A stretch of DNA of 64,000 nt from Paramecium tetraurelia (taxonomy: Eukaryota; Ciliophora; Oligohymenophorea; Peniculida; Parameciidae): contig NW_001799029.1 in the NCBI RefSeq assembly GCF_000165425.1, positions 1 to 64,000 of the forward strand, read 5' to 3'. This document shows positions 6 through 45,881 of the stretch, piece by piece. The notes below the pieces were generated by a model. That model saw only the letters and a list, made by a program, of their open reading frames with translations. It did not search any database and was not told where the DNA came from. The translations under genes were made by a program, and so were the position numbers. Positions within the stretch are counted from its first letter, which is position 1; each line of letters begins with the position of its first letter.

Positions 6-78
6 CCCAAACCCAAACCCAAACCCAAACCCCAACCCCAAACCCAACCCCAAACCCAAACCCAAACCCAAACCCAAA
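6..78. repeat. Macronuclear telomere, C-rich strand
   Basis: Tandem CCCAAA units mixed with CCCCAA and a few irregular 5- and 7-mers run almost to the first base of the window; the first five bases (ggaag) do not fit. The mixture of G3T3 and G4T2 units on the other strand is the known product of Paramecium telomerase. The C-rich strand read 5' to 3' at the left edge is the orientation expected for a left chromosome end. The repeat stops abruptly at 78, and the first gene ends only about 105 bp further in. Confidence 0.95.
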
Positions 79-183: not shown

Positions 184-2459
184 TCAAATTAATGATGATG
201 TTTTATTTACGGAATTATAATTAGTGTTATCAAACCCTTTGTTTGGTTATTTTTGATAAGCAATATAATAATATTTCTAAGCCTCTTCTAATTTATTCAT
301 TTTTTTTAAAGTATCAGCTTAGATATTATGAGAATTATAACATACCTTTATTTGTATAATAGACATGATTGGCAGGATTTTTCTCAATAGCTAAATCATA
401 ATATTTTAATGCTTCTTCAAATCGATTCAATTTAATTAAAGTATTGGCTTAGATATTATGCGAATAATATATACCTTTCATCCTATAAACCTCAGAATTT
501 TCAGGGTTATTCTAAATAGCGGAATCAAAATATTCCAATGCTTCTACGAATCTACTCAGTTTATCTAAAATAGTTGCTGAGATATATAGATTTGCTAGTA
601 CCTTTCTTCAAATAGTTCATGAAATTTTCAGGGTTTTTTTAAATAGCTATGTCATATTATTTTAATGCTTCTTCAAATTTATTTAATCTCTCTAATGCAT
701 TAGCTAAAATATTATTGAATTATACCTTTGTTTGAATAATAAAAGGAAATATCAGGGTTTTTCTAAATAGCTAAGTCATAACATTCTAAAGCTTCTTATA
801 ATCTGTTTATTATATGTAAAGAACTCGCTAGAAATTATGCAGATTAACTTATACCTTTGTTAAAATAGAGAATGTGATTTTCAGGGTTTTATTAAATGGC
901 TAAATTATATTATTCCAATGCTTCTTCAATTCTATTCAATTTCTTTAATGTCATGGCTAAATTACTTGGATTATATTATACCTTTGTTGTTGTAGTAAAG
1001 TGCATTTTGAGGGTTTTTCAAAATAGCTAAATTATATTATTCCAAAGCATCTTCTTCTCTATTCATTTTATCTAATGTAATCGCTAAGATATTATAAAGG
1101 CTTAATTGTACCTTTGTTATGATAATAATCTGAATCTTCAGTGTTTTTTTAAATTGCCAAATCATAATTATATAATGCTTCTGCAAATTGATTCAGTAAA
1201 CATAAAGCATTGGCTAAGATTTAAGCGAAGAAATTATACCTTTATTATTATAATAGGTAGAATCTTCAGGGCTATGATAAATAGCTAAATCATAATATTC
1301 TAATGCTTCTGTAAATCTATTCATCTTAAATAAAGCATTGGCTGAGTTTTTTATTGTAATAAATTATACCTTTGTTATTATGATAGTTTGAATTTTCAGG
1401 ATTTTTCGAAATCGCAATGTCAAAATAATCCAATGCTTCCTCAAATCTATTCACATTCATTAAAGTTTTAGCTTAAATGTTAGTTGAATAAAATTATACC
1501 TTTGTAAAAATAGTTATCTGAATCCTCTGGTTGTTTTGAAATAGATAAATCGTAATAATTAAGTGCTTCTTTAAATCTCTTCATTCTATCTAAAACAAAA
1601 GCTAAAATATTATGATGATTCAATGATACCTTTACTCTAATAATAGAGATGATTCTCAGAGTTTTTCTAAATTGCTTTATCAAACTATTCTAATGCATCT
1701 TCTAATCTATCCAAGTCATTTAATGTAATCGCTAAGAGATTATTCAAGATATAATTGTACCTTTATTATAATAATAGACTTAATTTTCAGGATTTATCTA
1801 AATAGCTAAATTATAATAATTCAATGCTTCTTTAAATCTTTTAAGTTTATTTAACATCTCCGCTAAAAGTAATGTGTAATTCATTATACCTTTACTATTA
1901 TAATAATCGGAATTTTAAGGATTTTTCCAAATAGCTGAATCAAAATATTTTAATGCTTCCTCACATCTATTCATCATTTTTAATGTAAAAGCTTGTTATT
2001 AATCAGATTTAAATATACCTTTATTATTATAATATCCTGAAGTCTCAGGGCTTTTAAAAATGGCTATATCATAATATTTTAATGCTTCCTCAAATCTATT
2101 CATCATTTTTAATGTAAAAGCTTGTTTATTATTCAGATTGAAAATACCTTTATTATTATAATACATAGCAATTTCAGGGTTTTTTTGAATTGCTAAATCA
2201 TAATATTCCAATGCTTCTTCTAATCTATTCATTTTTCTTAAAGTATCAGCTAAGATATTATGAGAATTACAATATACCTTTATTCTCATAATATTCTGGA
2301 CTATGAGGATTTATCTTAATAGCCAAATCATAATATTTCAATGCTTCTTCAAATATGCCCATTTTTTCTAAAGCATCGGCTAATATAGATATTATGTGGA
2401 TTACCTTTTTTAAAATAATACTCAGGGTTTTATTAAATAGCTCCCCCAAATTTGTTCAT
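184..2459 (-). CDS. Subtelomeric TPR-repeat protein, one repeat per exon
   Basis: Predicted 606-residue protein made almost wholly of 34-residue tetratricopeptide repeats with a core like EEALEYYDLAIQKNPE and a turn like YYNNKG. TPR arrays form helical protein-binding scaffolds; the partner cannot be told from sequence. There are 17 introns of 22-29 nt, all inserted after the same turn (for example 2380-2404, 2250-2277, 318-345). They leave sixteen internal exons of exactly 102 nt, so each exon encodes one repeat. The start at 2459 lies inside a shortened repeat. A further GT...AG intron-like sequence (2477-2499) and repeat remnant precede it, so the 5' end may have been trimmed. The stop is TGA at 184-186, about 105 bp from the telomere. 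Spliced length is a multiple of three and the repeats I translated contain no internal TGA. Confidence 0.8.
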
Positions 2460-2972
2460 TTTCTTTAATCTTAATGCTAAGCTTTTTTATTATTCAAACT
2501 TTTATATTTTTTTAATTTACTTCACTTTTTTTTTTCTCCTTATCCCCAATTCCAATATTGTTTTTCATTTAAGAATCAGCATTAATTTTAAGAAATTTTG
2601 CACCTTCTATCAATATATGTTTGTTTTATTGTTGAATGAAACTTTAGTGAACATTATGCTATATAAATTAAAAAAAATTTCGAATGCAAGCTTAATTTAT
2701 AAATATTTATTCTACTTATCTTGTCTTTGAAGCCATTCTAACGATATTACATTGTTAGTTTAAATTTTAATTTATTATCTTCAAATAGAAATAAATTTTT
2801 TTCTTTTTCAATCACAAAAAATTCATACATAAAAAAATAAGTAGATTTAAATTAGAGTCACAAAGATCTTTTCAACCTGAAATATCAGATAGCCATTTAG
2901 TCTAGATACTAGAATAGACCATTGATTTTTTTTCAATAAAATTATACTCAGATATATAGGGATAAGGATATA

Positions 2973-6807: not shown

Positions 6808-9800
6808 TCATTATTGTTTCTTGGTTTTCTTTTTGCTAAAGAATTTTTCTAAAGCTTAAATATCAGATTCATTGTCTAGATCCATCATTTCTTCTACATT
6901 TAGTGGTTCTAAACTAGTAATAATCTAAGCTTTTTTTCTAAAAATAATAGTTAGTTTCTTACTGCTGTTGAATAACAATCCCAAGATTAATTTTCATATC
7001 ACTTATTGCCTCTGCAACTAATTATTATCTTCGCTTTAATAGAACACTATCATGGTCTATTCTTGCTGTTGGATCTCCAATGGAAAACTTAAACTCTGTA
7101 TTTTTGAACATCAAATATAATGAATCAGCTATTTTGGAGATTGATTTTAATAAAAATTGGTAATCATTACCAACTTTTGGCCTATGGATATTATTGTAAT
7201 TTACTCTATAAATTCATTCCAAAATAATGCGATAGGTCTAGTAGTATCAGGACAATCGAAACAATGTAACCATGCTCTAATACGGATGTCACTAGCTAAA
7301 TTTAATTCAATTTCTCCCTTCATTTATGTTCTATAGGCAAAGTATTCTCGAAAAGCTGATTACATGCTTAAAGCCCATTTATTGAGCATGCATTTATTTG
7401 GTAGTGCTGATATTTTTTGAACCATCAAAGGAGGTAATTTCATGACTTCCAAAATTAATTAAGATTTTATATTAGAAGAAAGTGCTTTTACAACAGATCT
7501 CCATCCATTTCGATTTGTTCTGATATCTTTTTTATCAATAGTAATATCTTTTAATGGAGCACCACCTTTCAACTCAAGAATTTGTTTGCCTGGCTTTAAT
7601 TGATAGACAGGAATCGAACCATATGCACATGAGATCTATATTAGTCTTCCTTTATTAACGGAATAAGTAATGAATTCAAAAACCATCTCCTTTAAGTTAT
7701 CCAACTTTTCATCAAAATTACCCCATCTCATTAAGATGGCCTACTCCATAGCTGGTTATTCAAAAACCCATCTATCTTCATATTCTGGATTCCAAGCAGC
7801 AGGAATATAAACAGCATTACCTTCATACTTATTAATTGCTTTATCTATTAGGATGATGCCTATTTCTCTTCTCAAGAATGAACCCCTAGGTACATCTTTT
7901 TCATCTGGAATAGGTATTCCTGTTGCTTCAATCAATCTAATTTCTGCTAAGAAATTATTTTTAATATTAACTTTATCAAGAATGCTTTGTTTAATATTGA
8001 AATTAGATGCTTCAACATAATTTAGACCTTAATAAAAAAATCCACAATTATCAAGAACTGGTTTTAGTTAAGAGGATGGAAGATTTTGTAGTTTTTTATT
8101 TTATCCCCTAACAAAACTCATAATAAAGTTTTAAGGTAATTATAAGAAAATCTCTTTCAAATCATGTAATGAGATTCTTCTGCTACCCTTGATATTCATT
8201 ACTGCAGCTGAAGCTTTGGCTGACATTCCTGATTAGTTTTTTTGTATGAAATAAATAAATTCATCTATATCAATGGATCCAGATTTATCCTCATCTATTT
8301 CAACGAATAAATCTGTTAGTTCTTCATTTTTAATAAGTACTCCCATATTTTAGAATACTTAGCTCACTTGCTCTTTAGATAACATTCTTGTAGTTGGATT
8401 ACAAACTTATCTGAATTCTCTTCTCAAATCTTCTAATAAGTCATCTGCTTGCAGAAGTTCTTTTTTTAGGATATCTTTAACTATATGCGAGAATTCCTAA
8501 TATGATATTGTTCCACTTCTGTCTCGATCAAACTGAGCAAAATACTAAGATAACTCTTCAGTTCCAGGATTTAAACCTACAGATTGAAGAGCCTTTAGCA
8601 ATTCCCTTTAGTCTAGTTATTGATTTTTGTTTTCATCAATTTGGTTAAATAAATCCAAAATTTCTTATTCTATATCTTAACTTTAGACAATATTATCGGC
8701 TTATTTTTTTATTTATTATTCTGTTTATTTTGACTGAAACACTAATCTAAATTCATTAATAGAAATATGTCCACTAGAATTAGCATCTAGGTAATCATAT
8801 AGTTCTTCGCATTGAGTAGCAGATAATCCAAATTAAGCATCTAATGCTTTTTTAGTAAATTAAACTCTATCAATTGTGCTATTTGAATTCGGAGGGAAGA
8901 AATAAAGTGCAAAGTCATCATATGTTTTACTTCTCTTCTTCAAAAATTCATTTATTATAGGGAGCATCTTATTGAATTTTTCTTTGTTTTGAGTATTCAA
9001 TATAGACTTACGTTAATCCTTTTATGCTAAACCAAATTGTTATTTCTCATCCTCTTAGCTATATTAATTGATTTTAGTTCGATCCACATTTAAAAATTTG
9101 GCTAAATCGCTCAAATTTATGAACCCATTCTATTACAATAATTATTTAATTGATTTGATTTCATCGGCTGATATAGACCCTATTAATTTCTTACTTACAC
9201 TCAAAAAATCATTAAAGGGTATTTGATTGTATCCTCTTTTATCTAGTTGCTCAAAAAGATTGAAGCAATTTTTAGCTAATACTGCTTCTGATAGATGTAA
9301 TAAAAATGAATCTAGTACTGATTATAAAGCAGGATCTTTAGATTGAGTATCCTACTTTTATGGAATTACAATCTAATTTAAATTTAGAACTTCCTCGTAA
9401 ATCTTAAATGTTATCAAACCCTTTTACTCAGTATCCCAATACTAAAATGCTTCCCTCAATTCTCTTTCATTCAAACCAATTTTTAAATTGCTATTGATCT
9501 TATCTAATTATTTAATTTGCCAAGTGGGTTGATTCTCTCCAATTAGACCCCAAAGTTATTGTTTTGTATATTGTTTATGTTTGATCATAGTGAAGTTAAG
9601 TGCTTTGGCTAAAAGTTTACCAGGATTATTCATCTTTAAATATGGTAAAACTATCCCCATTTGATTTTACCCTTATGAATAATAGTAGTAATATTATTAG
9701 ACATGAGGTGTTGGTGCTAGTATTTCTAAAAATTAAAATGCCAATTCTAATTGATCAGGCCTTGATATTTTTAATTCTGGAAGTGGTGTTTCATCATATT

Positions 9801-12800
9801 GACACAGTAAATCAAAGAGATCAATATTTTTTTAGATGCACTTTTTTTGTATTTCTTAATCATAGAAATTTAGATCAAATTCAATAGGAATTTAAGATTA
9901 TTAAGGTTGAGGTTTGGCAGCTCTGGATTAATTAGGATCATATTTTTAAGAATATTGATCTTATCCTTGTGATACCCAGCTTTATTCAAATTTAGCATTC
10001 TGAACCCATTCTTGCTTTTTATCGAATTCTTATGGAACCTGTTTATTATACATTGTATTTTAAGGAGGATAGGCAATAGAACTATTAGGGATGGATGCAT
10101 TAAATGAAGCTTCCTATTGATTATATTATGGATTATATTATTAGTATTATTATTATTATTACGGTAACTAATTATTATATTAAGGTTTCTATTAACCATT
10201 ATATTAAGACTATTAAGCATTATATTAAGGTTATTACCCAGGAAATTATTGTTATTACCCAGGAAATTATTATTATTATTATCCAGGAAATTGTTGTTAT
10301 TATCCAGGAAATTGTTATTATTATCCTGGATATTGTTGTTATTGTCCATATTGCATTTATTAACCATTTTATTATTATTATTATTAATACTGAGGTTATT
10401 AAAATTGAGGAGGTTCTTAAAATTAAGAAGGTTAAGGTTAAACGTTTTATTGATATGGTTATTATTGAGGAATCTACACTTATGGTTATGATTATGATTA
10501 GATAGATTATTATCTTTATTACTATTTAAAGCCTAAGATAAATCTAAATTAATCTAATTTTTCTGAATATTCTTAATCAAAATATCTAAAAAATTAATCT
10601 AATTCAAGCATCGAGTATTTTTAAAAATAATTGATATAATTCGCAAATTGTTTAAATTCGATAAATTAAGATCCTTATGAAATGATTAGAAATAAATCAG
10701 ATAATTATTATTCCATCTGTGGATTGCGGCCATTTAACATTACTAATTTCATTTCCTGAATTTATTTAGCAGTGATTTCATTTCTTTTATATATTTAATA
10801 TTCAAACTCTGTGAAATTAATTTTACCATCTTTATCCATGTCAAATATATCAAATAGTTATTTTTAATTATCAACAGTCGTACTGTATCCAATAGTCTTC
10901 AAAAGTAAGGCAGTAAATTCTTCAAATGATATGAAGTTATTTTTATCCTTGTCAGTCTACCTATACATTGCAAGGAGAGTGCACACCTCCTTCTCTAGAT
11001 ATTGAGTAAAACTTTTAACAATTCTATCAATTTCCTAATTTGTATTGAGCACCAAGACCTTCCTACTCTCCTTGTACTTGGCTAATCCTAAGTTAATGAA
11101 ATCGTTGAAGGCATAATAATCGATGTAATCTTGAGCATCCTATTCTATTATTGTGAGTAATAGTTCCCATTCATTATCATTCAAAGCAATTGATTTGTCA
11201 GTCATTCCCATCTTAAGTGCTTTTACTTTGACCTTTCCCTTATGATTGATATCAAACTCCTAAGAAATCTCGATTACATTAGTGTTTTTGTTTTTGAGTT
11301 GGTCTCTTAACTTGGTAGCAATGGCCTCTATTTTAGTGGAAGGTGTTTCAACTTAATATTGCTTAGCTTTTAAACAAAAGATTTTGTAGTTGACGTTGTT
11401 ACCTTGTAATGCACCTAATTAATCAGCCAAGGCCTTCATTTCAAGCAATTAAATATTGGGACCATTATTTTTCTTGAGTACCATGATAAAGGTGTCTAAA
11501 TCTAATTTATTGGTATAATTTTCATCTCTTATTTCAAACTCTCCCAACAAGGCTGGAGAATCTTTAGCAAATTTCATTACATCATCAAATATACTCAACT
11601 ATTATTTATTGATTGTTGCCATAACCCTAGGCTTATCTTTGGTACACACTTTAGATTTGAATTCACTGATACTTATTGACCCATCCTAATTGGAATCAAG
11701 AAGTAAGAACAAATTATCAACTGGTTTATTCCTTGACATGGGATCGATGTCTCTAATCAATTTATAGAATTCTTGTTTATCTAAAACGTCATTTCCATTT
11801 TGATCATAATTATAAAACAGTGATGCTGTTGCCACCTTACCTGATTAAATAGTTTAATTCAAATTAATCAATAATTACTCCGCTTCTTCACAATCATGCA
11901 TCAGAACTGCCAATTTATCATATTGCAAAAACTTCTTATCTTCTGGGGATAGTAAATATTAAGCCAACTATTTGAATTCCTGGAATTCAAAGCCTAAACT
12001 CACTATGATATCTTAGAAGGCATTTAGCAAGATCTATCCTCTTCCTTTTTTATCAAATATCTCCAAGGATTCGTTATTTTCCCTTAAAGCATCTTTTAAT
12101 CGAAAGACTGCTTTCATAATCTAAGGAGTTAATTGTTTTGCAAATGTTTATGCGGTCTGTTTATATTTATATTTTGTCTATTATTGCTCTGATATGTCAT
12201 TTTCTTAATGTGATATCTTTTGCTTAAATTCATATAAGTTAATTGTATTGTCTCCATTGGCATCCAATTTTAAAAACAAAGATTCTACAATCTTTTAATC
12301 AACATCTCCTACTAATTACACAAGAAATTCAGCAAATTCTCTTAATTCTAATTTTGTATTTCTATTCGCATCATACTTCTTAAATACCTATTCAGGTTTG
12401 CTTTATTCATATGCTAATTCTGTATTGATATCTGATAATAGTTTATTTGAGGCTTCATCAAGTTTCAAACCCTATTTTAGTTTATGCAATGATATGTTTT
12501 ATTAATCCTATTGGATACTGGTTAAGAAATCTTAGAATTGATTATCTCCTGTATCTAATTACAATTGTTTATTGACAAAGTCTTGGAACTGCTTTTTTCG
12601 AATATATCCATCTCCCAAAGTGTCCAGATCCTCAATGTCTGCAAATGTGATTCTCTTCTTCTTCATCTATTTATTGAGCTACTCCAGAAACATAATAGCT
12701 TTATGTTGACTGTACCTATACTGCTCTATTTTTTTATCCTTATAATACAGTATTGCCTCAATGAGTAAATCAACATCAACTAATGACTTATCATGTGGTA

Positions 12801-15057
12801 CTAGAAGATTGTTCAATAGTTCTTCTTACTCTATTTCATAATCTCCTTTGTAAATTTCTAATTATCTGATTTTTTCTTTATATTATGTAATAGACATCCT
12901 TTAAAATGTGCTTTTAAAATACTATCTAGGAGTTTATTCTCTTTCTTGTAATTATTTATAGATAAATTGTAATAGTTGTTTTTGAGGATCAAATTACTTT
13001 GCATTAAATTTGATTGACTTATGCATAGATTCTTCTGGATCATCAAATGCACTTTTCTTCTCTTGTTTCTATTCCTTCACTTCTAATTCTTGGAGTAACT
13101 TCCAATTAGATATTTTTAGATCTTTACCCTTTTATACCATTGCATTAATGAATTGAGGGTACTCTATTTCATCTTTCACTCCAAAGATGCTCATTAAAAA
13201 TGTGAAATCTGAGTTCTTAAGACCATCATTTGCTTATTTAAAAGCGTTAAACAATTAATTTTTGGTGATTATGCTGGCGCTTTTTGTATTACTTCTTATC
13301 AGTTATGGCAATGTCATAGAAATACTCGCTAAACCATTGACAATTTCCTATAGAATTGCTCTGACATCTTCATTTATCAATTCTTCAAAGAATACTCTTA
13401 CATTTTCAAAGGAAATAGATTTCTTGTTTGTTGGATCCAGATGCGATAGTAACTACTTTTCAATATCAGGAGAAGGATGAATTTTAAGATCATTCAAGAA
13501 CCTATGTATTTCTTCATGACTCAATTCACCTCTTGATTTTGTGTCATAATGTCTGAAGAATTAGATAAAAATATTGTGGATTTCCCTTATTCCCCTATAC
13601 ATCTTCATTTTTAAATCATTGAACCCCAACTATTATTGATTCATAGACTTTGTATCTTCACAAAATTACTCATAATATATGATATTCTTCTTCTTAGGGT
13701 CATATTTCTATTGAATAATTGGAATATCTTCAGCAGCCAAATTTATTTAGTTGTCTTTTAGTGTTTAATCGAATTTTTCAAATTGCAGATATCCTACTAA
13801 TTCTGTGTCATTCTCTTTGAATTTCTCCAATAAATTAATTTTTTGCTCTTCAAGATATTTATGCAATTCCTTCATCATTTCTGATAGTTCCTACTCCTAA
13901 TAGTCATTCAATTCTCCTAACTTGATAATCTCCTTTTAATTTTACACCCATTAAGATAAATCAATCTCATCCTTTTTTGAGTTGTCAAACTATGCCAGAA
14001 ATGCTGATTTCTCCTTTGCAGTCACTTCAATTTTCAAATCCTGTAAAGCCTCCCAAAAGAATTCAGGTTTTATTCTCCGACTAACTGGTTATAATTAATA
14101 TTTGGATAAGTATTATGTAGCTGTTTGTGATTTCAATTATTTTGCTTTTTCCTTCAGTTCTTCTAACAAGAGTTCTGGCTATGGTGTTATTAATGTTTCA
14201 TCTGCAATTATCGCATTTTAAGAAAAAAAGTCTTGAACTAGATCTTCAACTTCTGACAAAGGTGGTCGATTATTGGGGTTTTTTTCCAACATTTTCTCTA
14301 TTAAATTATTGAAGTGGTTCCCATATGCTTTTCTCACTATTTCTCTGATTTCAATCCCCTTTTAGGATTCATGAGCCTAAAAATCTCGGAACACTAATAA
14401 TTCTTCCATTTCTCTGAGTGATGCCATTTGCAAAAATACCATTCCCAATTACCATACATCTATTTTTTGGGGATCTCCTCCGAATTAATCGGCCTAAGCA
14501 GTCCCTTATGAAAATCTTTGACTTTGGTTTTTTTTTAAAGTGGCAATGGATTCAGGAGGTAAGTAATTTTCGTTATTCTCATTTGAAAATTAATTGAAAT
14601 CTGTAATCACACAGCCTCCGTCTTCGTCCTCAAATAAATTCGAAGGCTTGATTCTGCAATGAAAAAATCTCTGTGTCTCAGTTTTTTTCGATTTATGTAT
14701 TTTATCCAACCAATTGGTAAATTCATCGACGTATTTTTGCATCACATTCATGGGAATGAACTTTCCCTATCTTCTATGCAATTTAATTAAATCCCCCATC
14801 GAATGTTTAAATTTCTTATAAACGAAGCTCACACCTTGTTTATCTTCCCAATATCCTTCTGGTATATAGATGCCTGGTTTTGATAATCGAATTTTCATTT
14901 AATCGATTTCATCAATCAATTCTTTTTATGTCTTCTTTTGAGGAACGACCTGCTTGCACACCCATTACTCTAAACCCTTCTTATATAGTCCTGTTTTTCC
15001 ATTGATTGGATAAATAATTTAAAACTCTCCTTATTGAAGTTTTTTCAATTAAGACAT
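6808..15057 (-). CDS. Giant pseudokinase / multi-EF-hand protein
   Basis: A single reading frame of 2,733 residues with only two introns (7182-7204 and 6938-6962). Residues about 1-320 form a protein-kinase-like domain with recognisable C-lobe landmarks (HCRIKPSNL, ITDFN, DVWQLGMVFLQMA). The HRD aspartate is missing (HCR) and DFG is DFN, so catalysis is unlikely. The rest is a long helical chain with at least nine canonical EF-hand loops, for example YDQNGNDVLDKQEF, LDSNQDGSISISEF, FDMDKDGKINFTEF, LDANSSGHISINEF, FDRDRSGTISYQEF and IDEDKSGSIDIDEF. At about 1520-1650 a Gln-rich segment repeats units like FPGQQQQ. The C-terminus (about 2300-2733) is an unidentified globular-looking region with a Lys-rich tail. 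Likely role, by inference, is a Ca2+-responsive scaffold. Confidence 0.85.
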
Positions 15058-16086
15058 TAATATAATATATAATCTTAAATATTTGAATTTCTAGTGAAAT
15101 TCTGAACATACAGTAGGTTCCTGGACAAAATGTGGGATTAAGATTCTGTAAAAAACCATAAAACAGGATTACTGTTCTAAATGGCTACTTACAAAAAATG
15201 GGATTAACTGAATGTTCAAATATCTTATATATAAAATAAAGATAACCAAACTAATACGATCTTTGAATCTTATTAGTTAAATATATCTGAATAAACCATT
15301 TGAGAATTATTTTAATAAATAATCTGTTAACTTTTATGATACGCGAGGGAAATAATTATAAAAATATTTAAACCCTTTTCGTGTCTGAACGTTCACTTCA
15401 AAAATGCATTAGGAAATTAATTAAGTAGAGTAATTAATTGCCATTCTTTTGATTTCAAGAAGTTAACTTTTTGGTTTGGTGGAATTCGAAAATGTTGATC
15501 AGACTTAATCATTAATAGTAATAGGCGTGTCTCATTTCTTTGAGCGGGTTTCGTATTTTGCCATCGATCCATCATGGTTTCAGATTATAATCATTATAAA
15601 TATCATTTAAGATGCGCAGTATTTATTTATTGGGGTTACTGTAATTGATTATTGTATTTTTTAATATATTAAAAGATGAACCACAGGTAACATCAATCTC
15701 AACAGCAAATACACACGACAACCAAAAAATCTCATTTTTATACTCAATCGTATTGCTACCTAACATCTCTTTTAGGCACAAAAGTGACCCAAACATCTCA
15801 CATGAACGAGACAAAATGTTTTCAAATATAAAATCAATCATTCAAAAGAATGAAACTATTCTCTCAACAAGATTAGAGAGTACTCCAATAATGAGAAAAA
15901 AAAATGAAACCTCAAAAACTAGTTGCACCTGCAATATATAATGAAAAATAGATTTTATTTGAAATTCTTATATGTCAGCATCTACTGAGTCTTCAGACAT
16001 AATGAATTTCTAAACAATTATATATATAATTATAGATTAATATTTAATATTTTCTGAAAAACTGTTAATTAATTAAACATATAACC
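15058..16086. other. Intergenic region, possible small ORF only
   Basis: About 1 kb between the divergent giant EF-hand gene and the small acidic gene, so promoters for both should lie here. The segment 15645-15950 has open frames on both strands; the plus frame would give about 45 residues from its first ATG (near 15816). Neither strand looks like a known protein. The phrase cattaatagta and GC-richer patches near 15350 and 15540 stand out slightly. No RNA gene recognised. Confidence 0.4.
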
Positions 16087-26366: not shown

Positions 26367-26513
26367 AATTACCCTTCAAAATTCTTCTATTTTCCCATTC
26401 CCAAATATATATATATAAACTCATTTACAAATAGGATTAATCCTCTTAACACTTTATAATCTTAGTTACAATTTATTTAATCAAATCAATTTCAGTTGTA
26501 TTAATGATTTGAG

Positions 26514-29438
26514 ATGGATATTTACTATAATAATACAAACGAAACATTATTATTTTATATGGATTTTTAGGCTAAACTAAAATTGAGCATCTTAATATTA
26601 TTTGTGCCGGTAGGTTTTATTGCTTTACTGCAAATAATAACATTAAATGTAATCTTTATCACCAACTTCTCTGATTAAGCGAATCAGTTGTCATTTGCAA
26701 TCTACAATGAAACAACCAGAACTACCCTTAGATTCAGCCATAAACTAGAAACCATAAATCTAGGTCTCAAGGCCAATGTCGCCTTTATTCTCTAAGATTT
26801 GATGACTGCCAATCAGGATTTGGAGTTTCATGACAGCCTGCAACAAATTTAGACCTTCCTGTATCCCTTAATCAGAAGAGGCAATATTGAGAACTTTAAG
26901 GTTATTTGCAAGGATTCATTTGAATACTCGATGCAGCAAATACCAAGCCAATTTGAATCCTGGAATTCAAGTAGTTAGGTTTCCGTAGATCTATATTAGC
27001 AGTACTTTCGATTCATTTTAAACTACAATCACAAATATAGCTGTAATATCCAATTATATTAATCTATCCTAAATTTGGTTGGTTAAACCTATAGATATGC
27101 CAATAGCGAAATATGGGAGAATCAATTGAATTATTTCATGATTAATGAGCAATTTTATTAATTCAGATATAATGAGTTCTTTCCCATTGAAAGGAGCAAA
27201 TTAGAAGAATATTATGGCCAATTCTTGGAACACCTACTGGTTCAATAAGATTTTGACGATTATCGCTGTTTACGCTAAGATACACTTATCTAGTATTATT
27301 AACAAAAGTCTTTCATATATGGTTGGTTCTACTCAATCCAAAAACAACACACTAGATGTGAAAAATAACAAATCTCTAAAATATTAGCAATCAAGATTTT
27401 CGATATTGAAAAATTCAAATAACTAGCTGGTTCTTCTCAGACTGAATCAGATCATAATGTATCATTGATCATAGCTCAGGCTGTTGTGAGTCTAACCTTC
27501 CTATTGTATGTCTGGACAACATCTATAAAGGTTGCCAATTCTTTCTGTCTTCCTCTTTAAAGATTGGCACTCCAGTTACAAAATCCATAGCAGCACAGCT
27601 TCGACTCAATACCACTGGAGGCAGGTGATTAAAATTGCAAGGAAATTAGTAGTCTTCATAAAAGCCTACAAATCTATCTCTACTATTATTAACTACTACA
27701 ATAACAACATTTCTACTCCGATCAAGATTAAGGGTCTCACTATTTAATGACCTTATCCTAACTCAGTGAGGTGTACAAATATCATAAAAACAATTGGTAA
27801 GTTAGTGTTTGTGCAAATAACATAGCATAGATACATCTAAAGAACAAGAGATACATCGAAGCACTCAAGTTTCAAGTAAAATCTGTGATTCTGGGATTTG
27901 AAGAGTACACTAGTATTAAGTAGATTGAAAAGATACGAAAACAATTATTACATAGTTAAAAGTCTATACTAATACAGTTGAGGAACAAGCTAACACGGTT
28001 TGTGATCAATAAATTAGCAGGTAGTACTTATATATTGCATTCAGAACATTTGAATAGAAATAGGTATAACTCTTTTATGCTATAAAATTCATATAAATAG
28101 TCTGAAATTTAATAAATTTAAGTAACTGAGAGATTGATTTTAATTAATTAGAAAAAATAAGAGAACTCTTTCGAAAAAATCGGCTATCACTAACAATTGG
28201 AGTTAGAAGAAGATCGATTTAAGGAAGAAAAGCGATTTTACAAGTTAACCATACTATTCAGGAAGTACACCTTCTGTAGAATGTTATATAAGTTTTGCAT
28301 TAAAGAATAGCCCCGTTTTCTGAATGAAGCTATTTGTTCTTTGACTGAATTATATGAGGAAATCTCAAACAAAAGCTATTCTGAAAATCGATCAATAATA
28401 GGAATGAAAATATAGTTGTTAATTATGAAGTTTAGCTGTTATTAAAAACTAAATTTGATTATCAAGGCTAAATAGGACTTGTATTCAATTAAAATACTCT
28501 ATGAGTAATATATTATGTTAGAGAAGTCGAACCTCGTTCTAAATGGATTCGACATATTTTAGTTGACATCAAAAGAAATTATTTAAAATGCTATTAGGAA
28601 ATTGAAAATTTGTTTATTAATGAAACATTAATAGTATTAAGAAGCTAGTGAAAAATGTATAAAGATTATAAGAAAAAACAGTTAGAATATACATAAATTG
28701 AATTCATTTGCTTATAAGACTCTGTAAAGCATTTTTATGAAATTGAATCTTAATCAGAATGTGTTATAAAAATTGTATCTTGACATAAATCCAAGAATGT
28801 TTCAAATATTCTTTTTGATTGACTATTCATCTAAGGTTTCTTTTGAGTAAATTTAAGTATCACATTCTATATGTGCTTATATATTGTAAAAGTTGATAAA
28901 TTTGAGAGAAGTAGGTTTGTACATATTTAATGACACTTTGTATGAGATGCTATCAGCCTCGTAATCAATTAAGTATAGGAAATTCTTGTTGAAGTAGTTT
29001 GAGAGATTCTAAATTATGAAAGGAGGCGAATGTAAGGTCCTGGAAAGTCTTGACAATCTATTAGAGTATAGATTGAATTAATTCTCTAAACAAAGCAGTT
29101 ATGATATGAACTAATCGTAGAAATCGATTATAATCCAAAAGGCATCATAAGAACAAAAGGGGATGGTGCAAAGTTTTGTTTGTGTGTTCTCTGAGTTCTC
29201 GATATGTGTGGATGAGGATTTATTGGAGAAGATACAGAAACAAACTTAAAGGTAGGAGATAAATTTGGTTCTGTTTAATATAGCAAATTCAAATAGAAAT
29301 CATGAGTAGGCGAAGAATCTTGCTAAGAAGATGAGTGCTTGTTATTTGGAGAGCGAGGTGGAAACAATCAGATGGATTTCTCACTTGAATTAATCTTCAA
29401 TTCCAATTCATACGTAGGGGTATGTGGAGTTTTTGTGA
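26514..29438 (+). CDS. Large two-TM receptor-like protein
   Basis: An intronless 974-residue frame. TM1 lies at about 24-50 (LSILILFVPVGFIALLQIIT). A roughly 270-residue loop rich in Tyr, Gln and Asn follows, then TM2 at about 318-342 (VSLIIAQAVVSLTFLLYVWT). A long helical cytoplasmic part has TPR-like pairs (for example around NIAQIHLKNKRYIEAL). Near residue 765 a segment FQIFFLIDYSSKVSFEQ resembles the start of a von Willebrand A fold with a degenerate DxSxS metal site. The topology is like chemoreceptors with an extracellular sensor between two TMs, but no kinase or cyclase domain follows. Function unknown; a ciliate-specific sensor or scaffold is my guess. Confidence 0.75.
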
Positions 29439-33007: not shown

Positions 33008-33662
33008 TCAATGCCAATTGTAGATATTGATCTAATTAAATCGGATGCAATATTTATACTTAGAAAGTTTGAGTAATCTTATTAATAGGAAGTATTTTGG
33101 AATAATTGCTTGACGAATGAATTATTCATTTTCTTGATTACTTTTTTCTCCTTCATTTGTTCCTTACTCTGAGTTTATCTTTGGTGCTTCATACTTTTAC
33201 GAATAATAAATTTTATCATTTCTTCCCTTGTCTTCACAACCTATTGATAGATGATGCTAGATGCATACTTGCAAGTATCTTGTGAAAATCTAAAAGAAGA
33301 CTGATTTTAGTGCCTTTTTTTAAGTCCAAAAACGAAAAGCCTTTTAATAAGCGAAGATCTATTCTTTGGATAGGTAATTGAGATGTCTCATGAGGAAATC
33401 GATCATTTTATAGACCTCCTCCTGGAGTTATTCTTTGGTCAGACAGATTAATTAGTGTTGTTGATTGAGGTTGAGTAATTTGCGCAGATGATGATTCTCC
33501 TCTGCCAAGACTTAGAATGTGGATTGGTAGTGTTATATCTCGTTGGGGATGGAAGTGTAGTGCACTGGAATTGGGCACTGTTGGATGTACAATTATTGTT
33601 CCTCCTAAATGGCTTATGAGCTATTTTACTTATTTGATTATTTAGTTTTCTTCTTCTTTCAT
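33008..33662 (-). CDS. Hypothetical coiled-coil protein
   Basis: Predicted 209 residues; one intron (33605-33629) removed after eleven codons, without which the frame runs into TGA. The N-terminal half is Gln-rich with an amphipathic segment FQVLAEENHHLRKLLNLNQQ that looks like a short leucine-zipper coil. The centre is aromatic and basic, and the C-terminus is basic (LIRLLKLSKYKYCIRF). No catalytic motif and no known family. It is convergent with the apyrase gene, 288 bp away. Confidence 0.6.
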
Positions 33663-33777
33663 TTTTTGTTATAAGGTTGAGTATTCTAAAAAACAAGTGA
33701 GAGATTAAATTAATTTAAAAATATTATTACTTCTCATCATTATATAAACTATTATATATATTTTATTTAATTAAGCT

Positions 33778-36523
33778 ATGCTCAAATGCCAAAGTCTTTA
33801 AAAGGCCCTACTCAAATATCTGAAGACCTTTGAAAACCAATCCTATTAGTCATGGAAATGGCACAACTACACTTAGTGGGCGGATCTTTCATTCAGGCCA
33901 TTAATAATAATGTAGATAATATTTATCATCATTAAACTATTGATCATCGCCAATAACTAACTACTGTGGGTCATTTTTGGAGTTCAGATTTTGGTTCATT
34001 CAATCCTATTTTTATGTCTTCCCAGAATCATTTACAAAGAGTCCTACTTTTTGTAGCTCGTCCCCTTAATATAACAGGAATGCTTTTGCCTCCTTTGTTA
34101 CTTTGCCTACAACGAAAGCTACCTCATGTTCTACACCACCATTTGCATCATCTTCCAAAGCATGTATTCAACCATCTTATGGAAGGTGATCGCAATACTA
34201 ATCTTTTTCATTCAAACTATCTTGCTTTTAGATCTATCCTCCTTTGAAGGACTCTATCTCACAGTCGCTCTGCTATTCATGCAGATCGTACGGAAAGAAC
34301 TCCAGCAAATGCAGCACTTCCTCAATTTACAAGCATTATTTTTAATCATCGACTCCACACCTTAGGCTATGTGTATAGCCCATAAGGATAAAAATTGGTT
34401 ACTCTATTCCAACAAAGTATTTGATAATTTAGCATATAAATTAGAGAATACAAATCAATCTGATACTGATTAATCTCCAGAAAAAACAGCAACTAATAAC
34501 TCTACTAAAAATTAATTAACTTTTTTGTAAAATTTATAATTAGATGAATTAAATAACAATCAAAAGTTTGTCTAATTTGATTTTGATGATGATGATTTAT
34601 ACTTCGATGATCAATACAAAATTAAGAATGTTACTTACAGCAAGGATAAAAATTCAATCTAATATTCTAAAGCCTTCTCTTTTGAAATACCAACTGATCG
34701 ACCCAAAAATCATGTTCAATTTTAGAGGTTTTTCCAATCATTTAAAAATCCTGATGATGAATCCATCATCAAAAAAACCTTCACGTCTGATGTCACAATG
34801 AAAATCGAAGTCAACAATCCACCCCAATTCCACTTGTTATCAGCAGGTAAGAAGAATCATCCTAAGAAATTGAACCTCCCAAATAAACAATCTAAATCAG
34901 GTAACTTAATGACTCCAAGTCGAAAAGTATCCGCTGATTTCTTATTGAATAGTAAGGAAAATAGGAGTTCTGGCCACAAACAGTCTCTGCTGGATCAAGA
35001 AGCGAATTTAATAAATAAGACAAAACCAGTTTATGTCCACAAAATGAAATTCTTAATTAACGTATTAGAGAATTGTAGAATCTTTGATAATGATGATGAG
35101 TTGTAAATATATTTCATTCATGAAGTCAATCAAATCTTATTAAGAGCAAAACTAAAAAAATTAGAATCAATCAAAAAGAATCTCCTGAGATCAATTTCTC
35201 ATGAATTGCTCACAAATCTTAATGCAGTCTTCGGATTCATCAAACAAAGCTAGGACAGGTTGCTGAATAAAGAATCCTGTCATCTCCAATTGGAACAGGC
35301 TTTGAGTTACACAAAATTGCAACTCTATAAGATCTATGACTTCTTCGATTACAGAGACATTCTAGAAGACAGTTTCCAATTGAAATCAGATAAATTCGAT
35401 ATCAATACAGTCATTTTAGAGTGTGTGGATTTGTTTAGAAATCAGATCGAAAGGAAGTCCTTAGCAATCAATGTGAAATTACCCGAAACCTCCTATATAA
35501 TTAGCGGAGACAGACAACGTTTGTGTTAAGTACTCCTGAATTTGATTGGAAATTCTATTCGATTCACTTACAAAGGAGAAATTACCATCACTGTTTAGAA
35601 GTAAGAATACATGGAGTCAATGGAAGGAATTGAGGTACATTCAGCTAATTTACAGGATAACAATTTGCTGGAAGTTCAAGTGAATGACACTGGGATAGGC
35701 ATGAAGGAGGGTGAGTTGAGCATTTTAAGAAAAAAGGTATTCCTTTTAATTAGAGTAGTTACATTTAACTGACGAGGATGAAAAGGTTTCTAAGCATTCA
35801 GTTGGCATAGGTTTGGGATTGTCTGTGAGCAAGCAAATTATCAAGTTGATGGCTCCGAACAATCAAAACTACATTTCTGTCGAATCAAAAGAAGATCAAG
35901 GCACATGCTTCAATTTTCTATTGAAATACAATGAAGAATCGAATCTAAGCACAAATTTCCTCTAAAGGTCCAACAATCACACAATTCCTTATGTGGATGC
36001 TCAAAGTACGTAATAGGTTCGCGTGATGAACTACAATAAATGTAATAACCTTCAGATCACTGAGAAGTAGGGTTAATCAGAATTGTAACTAGACAATCTG
36101 ATAAATTAATGCAATTGCAAAATTGTCTTGATTGTTGATGACGAGGAGTTCAATGTGGATGTCCTTATACATATGGTCAAAAATTTAGGATTTGATACAG
36201 ACTTTGCTTTCAATGGGAAGCAAGCGATTGAAAAAGTGCAAACCAAATTGCTCAAAAGGTGCAGTCAGTAGAATTGTATTGGATACAACTGCATCTTGAT
36301 GGATATTAATATGCCAATGATGAGTGGATGGGAAACTGTGTAAAGAATTCGACAAATAGAAAATGAGATCCATCTGAGCAGAACTATCCCTGTGGTTGCA
36401 GTTACTGGTTTCTGTAGTATCAAAGATCAATAGAAAAGCATTAATGAAGGATTTAATAGTGTTTTGATTAAGCCTGCTACAAAGGAGAAGTTAATTGAAA
36501 CTTTTAATCGTCTCAGTATCTGA
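33778..36523 (+). CDS. Hybrid sensor histidine kinase with receiver
   Basis: Predicted 907 residues; one 22-nt intron at 35737-35758, needed to avoid a TGA. About six hydrophobic helices occupy residues 40-190, then a polar linker. The dimerisation/phosphoacceptor box is RSISHELLTNLNAVFGFI (His about 476). The ATP-binding domain has an N-box (VLLNLIGNSIRF), G1 (VNDTGIGM) and G2 (HSVGIGLGLSVSKQI). The C-terminal receiver (about 773-905) starts VLIVDDEEFNVDVL and has the phospho-Asp in ILMDINMPMMSG and the Lys in VLIKPA. It should autophosphorylate and pass phosphate to its own receiver. The ligand is unknown. Confidence 0.92.
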
Positions 36524-42919: not shown

Positions 42920-45708
42920 ATGAAATAATTAGAGATGAATGGTACTTAATTGCTTTCTCAGAAAAAATAAGATTTATGGAATATTTTCAAAAGAGATCAT
43001 TCAATTGCCATTTTTTTTTGTTTTTAATTAACTATAAACGCACTCGTGATAATCTAATATGACTCCGAACTAATTTTTACAATTACAGTTTGTATTCTAA
43101 ATACAATTTTTGCAATAACCACTTAATTGATTGCACTTACTAATAAAACCATCCTATTTAAGAAAATCTGTATATTTATCAGTAAATTATCTACACTATT
43201 AATTATTGCATTACTAGACATATAATTGAAGAGCGCTTTGATAATACTTTTGCATTCCTTTGAAGTCTAAGAAGCGGATAAAAAGTATTTTTGCTACTTT
43301 GAAATCATTGCAACCAGAGCCATCACTCTCTTCATTATCATCATCAATTTTGACTTAATAGCAATCATATCAGTATCATTCTAATTGATTTTGGAACTAA
43401 ATCGCTTGCTCCAAGACAGAGAAGTGAAGTAGATCGTATAAAATCAAAAAAGCCCAATGGCCTTAAGTCTGATTTCCTAGTAAGAATAGGATAACTTGTG
43501 GAAAAATAGAATTTAAATGATTCCTGTATCATTTATAATGATTGATTCAAAAACCCAAAAAATCAATTTCAAAAACAGGACAGCTCATCACTTCTTTTCA
43601 ATGTTTTGCGAGAGTGACTAGGAATTCGAGGATCTCCTCCTCCATAAATTGCAATTCAATTTAGTTCAAGACAACATAGATCAGATTTGTCAATCCTTCT
43701 CCTACTTAAAAATACGCCAAAGACTCAGAAGCAAATAGAATCGTTTCTCTTAGTAGGACAATTAGAACTGCGCCACTCCACTTCCCCAATCAGGATCCTC
43801 AGCAATATAATGTATATCTTCAAAATAGGGCGATTCCTTCGATCACAATGCCCTTAAATTTACTTTGGCAGAAATTATAACAAACCTTTCTGATGGTCTC
43901 TTCTAGGAATACATCATAAATAATTCTTTGGAATTGCTTTGTCATCAAAACTATTTAGGACTTGTGGAAAATGCTAATACTAATCATACTCAATAGAAGA
44001 AATTCTAGTTGTCTGGGTCCATCTTGACCAATCAACAAAACGAAGAGATAATACTCCTTCTTAATGACATATCCAAGTAAAATGAACTATAATAATTGAT
44101 CTCTTAGGATGAATTCAAATCGAAAGTAAGTATAATAAATATTATTTTTAGATTGTAGAATCCTTTTCACATGAATTGAGAACCCCTTTGAATGGAGCCA
44201 TTAATTTTCTATCTGCCTTTTTGTAAGACACTGATCTTACTGAAGCAAATAAAAAATAATATATAATTCCAGCAATAAACTCTCTTAGGATCTAATCATA
44301 TTTGATTAGTGACATAATAGACTTCACATCTGCAAGTTCAAACAATTTAGAGCTCTTCATTAAGGAGTTTTCTATGCGAGAATTAATTAATGAGATTACA
44401 TCTCTTTTTACAATGTAATTTGCAGAGAAACATCTTGAATTTAGAGTAGATCTAATGGATTGTTATACTAATTCAGTGACCAGTGATTATAGTAAACTAA
44501 TGTAAATATTGGTGAATTTACTTCAGAACTCCATCAAATTCTCAACTGAGGGATTGATTGTCCTGAAAATTTAATCTCAAACTAAGGAAATTCTTAAATT
44601 TACTGTTACGGACATGGGACAAGGAGTTTCCTAGTCCAACATTTCATAAATTCAATTGTAATTAAATAATTTGAAGAATCAGAAGGAGATTCAATAAAAT
44701 AAGAAGTGGCATGGATTTGGATTATTGATATCTGCTACATTAGTTTAGAAACTAGGACCATCTGATAAGAGCACCATTAAGTTTGAGTCAGATGGAATCA
44801 ACATGGGTTCTAAGGTATCTTTTTTTATTAAGAATTAATAAGTGAAACATAATAGTATTAAGTAACCTACAATTAGATAAAACACATAAAGGTTTTAGAG
44901 TTCTGTACATTTGACTTCTTCGTTCAACAATCTCAATGGTACAATAATTTAAACATCGGACTAGGGATTGGTAATGAAGAATACTCAAAAATAATAAAAA
45001 ACCAAAATTAGCTCATAAAAATCTAATGATAATTCCATGTTTAGTGAAAGTGTTGTTTTGGACTCTTTGGATTAGAAGTTTAGTTTGTTGCATCCTGTTG
45101 AACCTTCCTTGATTACCAATATCCTTTGTGGTTCTCCTTAAAAGCAGGTCGATAGGAAACCTTTTGTCAAGAACGAGAACTCCTCATAAAGATCGAATAA
45201 CTCAAAGATACTGAGCGTACAATTCATTAAGTAGGCAGAAGAACAGGAGGATGAGGAATTGCTGTAAACGTATAAGAGGCGGAAGAAATGTCAATGTCAA
45301 AGGATTATGTCTGTGGATGATGAAATATTCAACCAGAAGTCAATTCAGATGTTGTTATGCAAATTGGGATTCGAAGTTATTCTAGTAATTTTGTTATTTT
45401 ATATTTAGGCATTCAATGGACAATAAGCTTGCGTTGATATTTTGAACATTAAAAAATGCGGGAAGAAGTGTTCATTATTAACTCTCATCTTGATGGACTA
45501 CTAGATGCCCATTCTAAATGGGTGTCAGGCTTCAGAGAAATTGATTCAGATGATGAATGATAACATTATACCGAAAATTCACATTGTTGGTTTAACTGCT
45601 TTTACGAATTCAAACGATATTGAAAATTGTTTAAAAGCAGGAATGAGTGATGTCCTGCATAAGCCGCTTAATCTAAAGGAATTTAAGGAAATTCTTACTT
45701 TAATTTGA
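42920..45708 (+). CDS. Hybrid histidine kinase with Cys-flanked receiver (copy 1)
   Basis: Predicted 912 residues; introns 44126-44151 and 45385-45408. The N-terminal 170 residues hold several TM helices. The phosphoacceptor box is VESFSHELRTPLNGAINFL (His about 406), followed by an N-box (ILVNLLQNSIKFS), G1-like (VTDMGQGV) and WHGFGLL in the G2 place. The receiver (about 789-912) is preceded by KKCQCQRIM, starts SVDDEIFNQ, has the phospho-Asp in ILMDYQMPILNG and the Lys in LHKPLN. An internal CGKKC lies in the receiver. Tandem with a close paralogue at 45882. The Met at 42935 is an alternative start. Confidence 0.9.
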
Positions 45709-45881
45709 TAAACCTAAACCATTTTTATATTAATACTTTATGTTTTGAAAAAATTAATGATTTTACTGTTAAATTTATATATTATATACTTGCGAAAATA
45801 ACAATAAGTTGTCCTTACTTTGATTTAATATATATTATTTTAAATAATAATATTTTTCATAGGCTATTAGAATCACTAAGC

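What the first reader, a model, noticed from the sequence alone, without database searches (positions are those of the whole stretch)
184..2459. One-TPR-per-exon gene: sixteen exact 102-nt exons with an intron in every repeat
Reading the minus strand, 17 introns of 22-29 nt fall at the same place in each TPR turn, leaving sixteen internal exons of exactly 102 nt (34 codons). The intron has evidently been copied with the repeat, so repeat units can be gained or lost as exon-intron modules without changing frame. The intron sequences are similar to each other yet vary in length. I know of TPR genes in ciliates but not of such a regular module; whether it has been described I cannot tell.
Basis: partly seen in the sequence, partly recalled or inferred. 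Interest (0 to 1): 0.75.

Follow-up and report, generated by a model that had tools for sequence, protein, structure and literature searches.

The report
One-TPR-per-exon gene family in a ciliate
A Paramecium-like ciliate carries a family of genes in which each turn of a repetitive scaffold protein is its own exon of exactly 102 letters with a tiny intron behind it, so that turns can be added or lost without breaking the message; similar one-repeat-per-exon arrays are known for other repeats and lineages, but my searches found none described for Paramecium TPR genes.

Summary
On the minus strand, code 6, 17 phase-1 GTA..AG introns of 22-29 nt separate sixteen internal exons of exactly 102 nt, each one 34-residue TPR turn. 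The gene is probably longer: relatives suggest a start at 2752 and two more 5' introns (inferred).

It is not alone. 30 of 44 sources examined, the window included, share the architecture: 465 units, 2-38 per locus. Of 440 junctions, 393 have GT..AG at exactly the predicted bases, none at shifts of 1-6. Other TPR loci of this genome have intronless junctions (43, in 8 of 14 control loci).

Introns travel with exons: they are more alike within genes than between, and the 55 exon pairs at least 96% identical carry introns 95% alike. In the window gene this turnover is old; only a few module pairs still show it.

Closest precedents: Tetrahymena 90-bp LRR exon arrays and brown-algal one-repeat-per-exon genes. 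No RNA was available, so splicing is inferred; function beyond a TPR scaffold is unknown.

The parts
184..2752 (-).
   Evidence: code 6, 688 aa with 19 introns; the 606-aa core from 2459 is the part confirmed exactly. The last-exon row '101' printed is an arithmetic slip: the stop ends at 184
2716..2752 (-). proposed exon 1 (37 nt, ATG at 2752)
   Evidence: about 30% identity of the N-terminal peptide to hand-spliced ones of L016 and L022; inferred, weak
2691..2715 (-). proposed 5' intron A, 25 nt, phase 1, GTA..AAG
   Evidence: inferred
2521..2690 (-). proposed exon 2, N-terminal region without Pfam match
   Evidence: one search tested an unspliced reading that shares this exon's frame
2499..2520 (-). 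proposed 5' intron B, 22 nt, phase 0, GTA..AAG
   Evidence: inferred, least certain junction
2380..2404 (-). intron 1, 25 nt, TAG
2250..2277 (-). intron 2, 28 nt, TAG
2121..2147 (-). intron 3, 27 nt, AAG, 3n without TGA
1992..2018 (-). intron 4, 27 nt, AAG, 3n without TGA
1863..1889 (-). intron 5, 27 nt, TAG, 3n without TGA
1732..1760 (-). intron 6, 29 nt, TAG
1602..1629 (-). intron 7, 28 nt, TAG
1472..1499 (-). intron 8, 28 nt, AAG
1342..1369 (-). intron 9, 28 nt, CAG
1214..1239 (-). intron 10, 26 nt, TAG
1084..1111 (-). intron 11, 28 nt, TAG
957..981 (-). intron 12, 25 nt, TAG
828..854 (-). intron 13, 27 nt, TAG, 3n without TGA
704..725 (-). intron 14, 22 nt, TAG
577..601 (-). intron 15, 25 nt, CAG
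448..474 (-). intron 16, 27 nt, AAG, 3n without TGA
318..345 (-). intron 17, 28 nt, AAG; 25 of 28 nt identical to intron 2
346..2379 (-). the sixteen 102-nt exons, interleaved with introns 2-16: 2278-2379, 2148-2249, 2019-2120, 1890-1991, 1761-1862, 1630-1731, 1500-1601, 1370-1471, 1240-1341, 1112-1213, 982-1083, 855-956, 726-827, 602-703, 475-576, 346-447
   Evidence: 10 stretches of PF00515 in the 606-aa protein, 275.6 bits against a cut-off of 27.8
184..317 (-). last exon: part of a final TPR, C-terminal tail, TGA
6..78 (.). telomeric CCCAAA/CCCCAA repeats; the gene's 3' end is about 105 bp from them

Best explanation
This is a protein-coding TPR-scaffold gene of a Paramecium-like ciliate, built from a tandemly amplified DNA module of about 130 bp: one short phase-1 spliceosomal intron plus one 102-nt exon. 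Because every intron splits the same codon (TPR position 8, G|CN or G|GN), each exon is symmetric (phase 1-1) and 34 codons long. Adding, losing or converting whole modules, singly or in blocks, therefore leaves an intact frame and a complete TPR turn. Shown: the anatomy, the same architecture in 30 of 44 sources examined, and the copying of introns together with exons in young arrays. Inferred: that the introns are spliced; that unequal crossing-over or gene conversion is the copying step; that the introns are passengers and not the sites of exchange; and that the product is a superhelical protein-binding scaffold.
For: Exact anatomy, 16 of 16 exons at 102 nt and 17 of 17 GTA..AG introns. GT..AG at the predicted bases in 393 of 440 family junctions and 0 at shifts of 1-6. 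Intron identity 0.645 within genes against 0.544 between (385 introns, 25 genes); the difference of 0.101 compares with at most 0.005 in 300 label shuffles, and remains without the three most uniform arrays (0.603 against 0.544). Intron and exon similarity correlate at p < 0.05 in at least one of two uncorrected tests in 13 of 18 genes. 264 of 412 modules have their nearest exon in the same gene, chance about 20; 55 exon pairs at least 96% identical, all within one gene, mean intron identity 0.95; in L022 5 of 7 such pairs are three units apart, so blocks are copied too. Median dN/dS 0.50 among window exons. 12 of 17 introns would shift the frame if kept. In L030, 28 of 29 three-n GT..AG introns carry an in-frame TGA. 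TPR identity: PF00515 at 275.6 bits; best solved chains are O-GlcNAc transferase.
Against: No RNA. 5 of 17 acceptors are AAG and 5 of 17 introns are translatable 3n; two further introns (7 and 11) meet no TGA within themselves plus the next exon if kept. The intron-exon correlation in the window gene is weak, and 5 of 18 genes show none. In 9 of 25 genes introns are hardly more alike within than between (difference 0.02 or less), so common origin there rests on position alone. 47 of 442 intron-sized gaps are not GT..AG at the predicted place;'s listing ten of these are GC..AG there, others show shifted ends or frame breaks (L009, L013, L014, L015), so part of the family may be decaying. The window gene's proposed 5' end needs two unproven introns. 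The family was delimited after seeing the gaps.
Confidence: 0.86

Rival explanations
1. Introns were gained independently at a recurring proto-splice site (the AAR|G of the conserved Gly/Ala codon in each TPR), not copied with the repeats.
For: The site AAAG|G recurs in the repeats, and old arrays show unrelated intron sequences at one position. A mixed array exists: L032 has two intronless and two intron-bearing junctions at the same place.
Against: Introns cluster by gene and match where exons match. 43 intronless TPR junctions in 8 of 14 control loci show that the site alone does not draw introns (two of the pairs, L035/L036 and L037/L038, are near-duplicates of each other). Paramecium genes have about 2 introns on average (PMC11334263, passages), against 17-19 here.
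Confidence: 0.07
2. The window gene is a dead or dying subtelomeric copy: the arrangement is real but inherited, and the gene is no longer made into protein. (Compatible with the best explanation; it concerns this copy only.)
For: Weak acceptors (5 of 17 AAG) and translatable introns (5 of 17). Degenerate first TPR and uncertain 5' end. Relatives with frame breaks. About 105 bp from the telomere.
Against: No TGA or frame break in 606 codons across 17 junctions. dN/dS 0.50 among its exons, though that mostly measures the past. GTA..TAG is met by only about 70-77% of P. tetraurelia introns anyway (PMC5663052, passages).
Confidence: 0.3
3. The spacers are not introns but are translated, i.e. a repeat of about 43 residues.
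For: Five 27-nt spacers are in frame without stop, and a 197-codon stop-free frame (1747-2337) runs unspliced through three of them.
Against: 12 of 17 spacers break the frame. GT..AG sits exactly at the TPR-defined boundary in 393 of 440 junctions. 28 of 29 three-n GT..AG spacers in L030 contain an in-frame TGA.
Confidence: 0.02

Closest known systems
Tetrahymena 90-bp-exon LRR gene arrays (Xiong et al. 2019, PMC6564038; abstract, twelve passages and sections 9 and 23 read)
   Same: Ciliate; tandem arrays of exons of one exact length; introns nearly all of one phase; exon number varying between genes; exon-intron units thought to be duplicated together.
   Different: LRR not TPR; 90 not 102 nt; phase 2 not phase 1; more than a thousand LRR genes in most species against 30 loci found here; reported concentration in pericentromeric and subtelomeric germline regions and beside a LINE-like element, neither of which is shown here. 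The paper lists TPR among the domains of species-specific genes; what I read describes no TPR exon array.
Brown-algal NB-ARC-TPR and LRR-ROCO genes (Zambounis 2012 and Teng 2023, neither held; PMC11378527, passages read)
   Same: One repeat per exon with same-phase introns in the ROCO genes; TPR exon shuffling is cited there for NB-TPR genes.
   Different: Receptor-like proteins with an NB-ARC or ROC domain; LRR exons 72 bp, phase 2; no such domain was found here. The exon length of the algal TPR exons I did not see.
TPR-array IES duplications in Paramecium (PMC3464196, two passages read)
   Different: Concerns germline eliminated sequences, not introns; the passages read mention no exon-per-repeat structure.
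Expansion of protein domain repeats by exon shuffling (PMC1553488, passages read)
   Same: General idea that some domain repeats expand by exon shuffling.
   Different: The passages single out EGF and IG domains, not TPR.
O-GlcNAc transferase TPR superhelix (PDB 7ntf, 1w3b)
   Same: Best solved-structure matches by sequence (eight window units given).
   Different: No catalytic domain in the window protein.

Membership tests
Tetratricopeptide repeat (TPR) proteins | 34-residue repeats matching the TPR profile above its cut-off | tested here: met
   PF00515 275.6 bits, cut-off 27.8, 10 stretches
Paramecium short spliceosomal introns | length 20-34 nt (more than 95% of introns, PMC11334263) | tested here: met
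   17 of 17 at 22-29 nt
Paramecium short spliceosomal introns | GT..AG ends | tested here: met
   17 of 17 in the window; 393 of 440 family junctions at the exact place
Paramecium short spliceosomal introns | GTA..TAG consensus (about 70-77% of P. tetraurelia introns, PMC5663052) | tested here: inconclusive
   10 of 17 in the window; 205 of 363 family GT..AG introns without L030
Paramecium short spliceosomal introns | removed from mRNA | not testable with these tools
   no RNA data held
Tetrahymena 90-bp-exon LRR arrays | exactly 90-bp exons encoding LRR, phase 2 introns | tested here: not met
   102 nt, TPR, phase 1
Tetrahymena-type exon arrays (general kind) | tandem exons of one exact length with introns of one phase | tested here: met
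Brown-algal NB-ARC-TPR / LRR-ROCO receptors | NB-ARC or ROC-COR domain beside the repeats | tested here: not met
   no such Pfam match in the window protein (best 25 of 29 families shown) or in 5' pieces of six fetched loci and the window
Brown-algal NB-ARC-TPR / LRR-ROCO receptors | one repeat per exon, same-phase introns | tested here: met
Paramecium as the source | code 6, C3A3/C4A2 telomere, 20-30-nt introns | tested here: inconclusive

The most novel reading that the evidence does not exclude
Paramecium has its own old, still active exon-array system, separate in origin from the Tetrahymena LRR arrays. A phase-1 intron at TPR position 8 has ridden along with TPR repeats into dozens of genes, so these genes evolve by whole-module gain, loss and perhaps in-frame exon skipping, and intron similarity within a gene records how recently its array expanded. 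The variable, weakly constrained arrays could serve as a diversified recognition repertoire, like the one-repeat-per-exon receptor candidates of brown algae.
Probability: 0.4. Interest if true: 0.72.

Novelty: new variant of a known kind. Interest (0 to 1): 0.55.

Why it matters
[quoted passage not shown] This family is a second ciliate case, with another repeat, exon length and intron phase, so the same architecture has probably arisen more than once. Tiny introns that travel with a repeat give a natural test of whether introns help repeat expansion or merely survive it. They also show how splicing signals and NMD-related length rules fare after copying: in L030 a 27-nt intron with a stop has been multiplied almost 30 times.

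Tried and rejected
Translated-spacer reading: rejected, because 12 of 17 spacers break the frame. Chance agreement of exon lengths: rejected by the shift test. Subtelomeric enrichment: 13 of 30 family loci lie within 2 kb of a contig end and 15 of 30 within 5 kb, against 0 and 1 of 14 control loci. But of the 12 family loci whose held stretch reaches a contig end, only the window shows a run of telomere repeats (11 hexamers counted); the other 11 show none or one, so these may be assembly breaks inside repeats, and I do not claim enrichment. Recombination breakpoints: the self-alignment gave 6 alignments in 3 genes (none in L030 under the thresholds), 12 of 12 ends in exons, three of those ends being merely the start of the stretch; too few to say anything; a first run failed with a script error. 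Ohnologue comparison: the best paralogue of a neighbouring gene lies on contig C167 at 65% identity, but that contig ends 3 kb further on without telomere repeats or TPR units; searches with two other neighbouring genes and with the DNA next to the TPR gene gave no closer partner. N-terminal domain: no Pfam match above cut-off in pieces from six fetched loci and the window (the best, 20.5 bits in the L014 piece, is below its cut-off of 27). Structure prediction was not used: the spliced protein is not a straight translation of the window, which that tool requires. Literature: 9 searches (listings capped, mostly only listings seen) gave nothing that I recognised as a TPR exon array in Paramecium or as 102-nt TPR exons; they cover open-licence PMC papers only.

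Choices that affect the counts. The split into 30 family and 14 control loci was made by me after seeing the gap lengths, so the near absence of intronless junctions within the family (2 of 452) is partly by selection; several family loci are tiny (L026 has one junction, L025 and L050 two, L049 three on one strand and one on the other). The 14 control loci give 43 intronless junctions in 8 loci and three GT..AG gaps of intron size (two in L032, one in L044); the other 6 give no clear intronless neighbours. L001-L008 were left out of the census as duplicates of later loci or of the window. One search dropped junctions with gaps outside -12..70; one search kept gaps of 18-34 in loci with at least 3 units. 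The low in-frame TGA count (16 of 17,204 codons against 457 and 1,091 of 16,698 each in the other frames) is biased, because units were found in stop-free stretches, and it includes control loci. The Mantel test of the window gene leaves out introns 1 and 17, and one search leaves out intron 1. In one search the last-exon row is wrong (arithmetic slip); the stop is at 184.

Full report
The observation. Read on the minus strand with code 6, window 184-2459 holds a gene with 17 introns of 22-29 nt, all GTA..AG. Sixteen internal exons are each exactly 102 nt, and the frame is open for 606 codons from ATG 2459 to the TGA ending at 184. The introns are all phase 1: the last base of each exon is the G of a Gly/Ala codon finished in the next exon. 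That residue is about position 8 of the TPR motif: exon-level matches to PF00515 in loci of this family begin at profile position 7 in examples from C4, C155 and C212, and at 4-8 in others (that position 8 is the small conserved residue is recalled). So each exon is one TPR turn, rotated by about seven residues against the textbook repeat. The length of 102 nt follows from 34 codons and one fixed intron position. The protein is TPR by profile (PF00515, 275.6 bits, cut-off 27.8), and its best solved-structure matches are O-GlcNAc transferase chains.

The 5' end. The sequence upstream of 2459 is related to the sequence upstream of the arrays in L009, L011, L012, L015, L016 and L022, six of the twelve loci compared (best E = 9e-21 with L022). 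An open path from ATG 2752, with introns at 2691-2715 and 2499-2520, gives 688 aa, and its N-terminus is 30-32% identical to hand-spliced ones of L016 and L022. This is inferred, and the second of these introns is the least certain. No Pfam domain reaches its cut-off in this region (which used an unspliced reading of it).

The family. A DNA search of the window's own genome (69 Mb, 231 contigs) found 73 matching stretches; profile and protein searches found more TPR loci (both limited to the best 150 matches). I fetched 43 loci and scanned them and the window with a 34-residue profile. In 30 of these 44 sources the repeats are separated by intron-sized gaps: 465 units in all, 2 to 38 per locus, some cut by contig ends. 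Of 452 junctions in them, 442 have a gap of 15-40 nt, 2 have none and 8 something else; 395 of the 442 are GT..AG. In a stricter set, 393 of 440 junctions have GT..AG at the bases predicted by the repeat boundary, and at shifts of one to six bases none has both. The other 14 loci, which I set aside as controls after seeing their gaps, hold 43 intronless junctions in 8 loci and three intron-sized GT..AG gaps. So the genome has both styles of TPR gene.

Copying of introns with exons. Among 385 introns of 25 genes, identity is 0.645 within genes and 0.544 between; the difference of 0.101 compares with at most 0.005 in 300 label shuffles, and holds at 0.603 against 0.544 without the three most uniform arrays. 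Shuffled intron pairs give 0.525, and 9 of 25 genes show little clustering (difference 0.02 or less: L010, L012, L013, L021, L024, L031, L045, L047, L048). In 13 of 18 genes intron and exon similarity correlate in at least one of two tests at p < 0.05, uncorrected; five show nothing (L009, L012, L021, L024, L047). Of 412 modules, 264 have their nearest exon in the same gene, about 20 expected; 55 exon pairs at least 96% identical all lie within single genes and have introns 95% alike on average, 39 of them in L030; in L022 5 of 7 such pairs are three units apart. For the window gene the trace is older: 6 of 16 nearest exons are its own. Its clearest pairs are introns 3/4 with their exons, introns 2/17 (25 of 28 nt) with the start of their exons (34 of 37 nt), and less clearly introns 2/16. 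Introns 2 and 17 differ in their acceptors, TAG and AAG.

Splicing constraints. Five of the 17 acceptors are AAG and five introns are multiples of three without TGA. Of the 12 that would shift the frame if kept, 10 meet a TGA within themselves plus the next exon; introns 7 and 11 do not. In P. tetraurelia, introns that are multiples of three are depleted (PMC11334263, passages) and 70-77% of introns match GTA..TAG (PMC5663052, passages). The family is below that, 205 of 363 GT..AG introns without L030, with 82 of 363 translatable. L030 is the opposite case: 28 of its 29 three-n GT..AG introns hold an in-frame TGA, one intron sequence multiplied along the array. Among the junctions that are not GT..AG, ten are GC..AG at the exact place.

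Selection and decay. Within the window gene the median dN/dS between exons is 0.50 (123 pairs with pS 0.05-0.6); family loci with more than one such pair range from about 0.4 to 1.1. Some relatives carry frame breaks. I read this as a birth-and-death family with intact and decaying members. The window gene is intact over its TPR part, but whether it is expressed is unknown.

How it most likely works. Symmetric phase 1-1 exons of 34 codons mean that any event copying or deleting whole periods of about 130 bp keeps the frame of the spliced message, wherever in the period the exchange falls. I therefore take the intron to be a passenger whose fixed position keeps each new unit spliceable. The small set of recent duplicates does not show exchange points in introns, but it is too small to decide.

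Against what is known. [quoted passage not shown] abstract, passages and sections 9 and 23), and one-repeat-per-exon genes in brown-algal LRR-ROCO and, as cited there, NB-TPR genes (PMC11378527, passages; the primary papers are not held). The present family shares the architecture, not the repeat, length, phase or partner domains. Nine literature searches gave no listing that I recognised as describing it in Paramecium; the library holds open-licence papers only. Hence new variant of a known kind.

Limits. That the organism is a Paramecium is inferred from code, telomere and intron size.

Noticed in passing
L030 (G000 contig C24:251500-256700): TPR array of about 38 units with nearly identical 27-nt introns, 28 of 29 three-n GT..AG introns carrying an in-frame TGA; the youngest-looking expansion in the family.
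   Followed up: partly
L020 (contig C4:1-1824): 12 GT..AG introns, 11 of them beginning GTT, very uniform, with median dN/dS 1.07 between exons; an amplified array with a changed donor.
   Followed up: partly
L009, L010, L012, L013, L024, L027, L030: Ten junctions with GC..AG at the exact predicted place, possible GC-AG introns.
   Followed up: no
L009, L013, L014, L015: Family members with frame breaks or displaced splice sites inside units; probably decaying copies.
   Followed up: no
window 7114-15498 (-): 2795-codon open frame with many EF-hands; tandem repeats near 10.2-10.4 kb lie inside it.
   Followed up: no
window 33475-35769, 44113-45705, 45651-48311 (+): Open frames with histidine-kinase ATPase domains, the last two also with HisKA and 44113-45705 with a response-regulator receiver domain: two-component signalling genes in a ciliate chromosome.
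   Followed up: no
window 26508-29435 and contig C167:488734-491646: A 65% identical paralogue, perhaps a whole-genome-duplication partner; contig C167 ends 3 kb beyond it without telomere repeats.
   Followed up: partly
window 1747-2337 (-): 197-codon stop-free frame that runs through three unspliced introns, because introns 3-5 are all 27 nt without TGA.
   Followed up: partly
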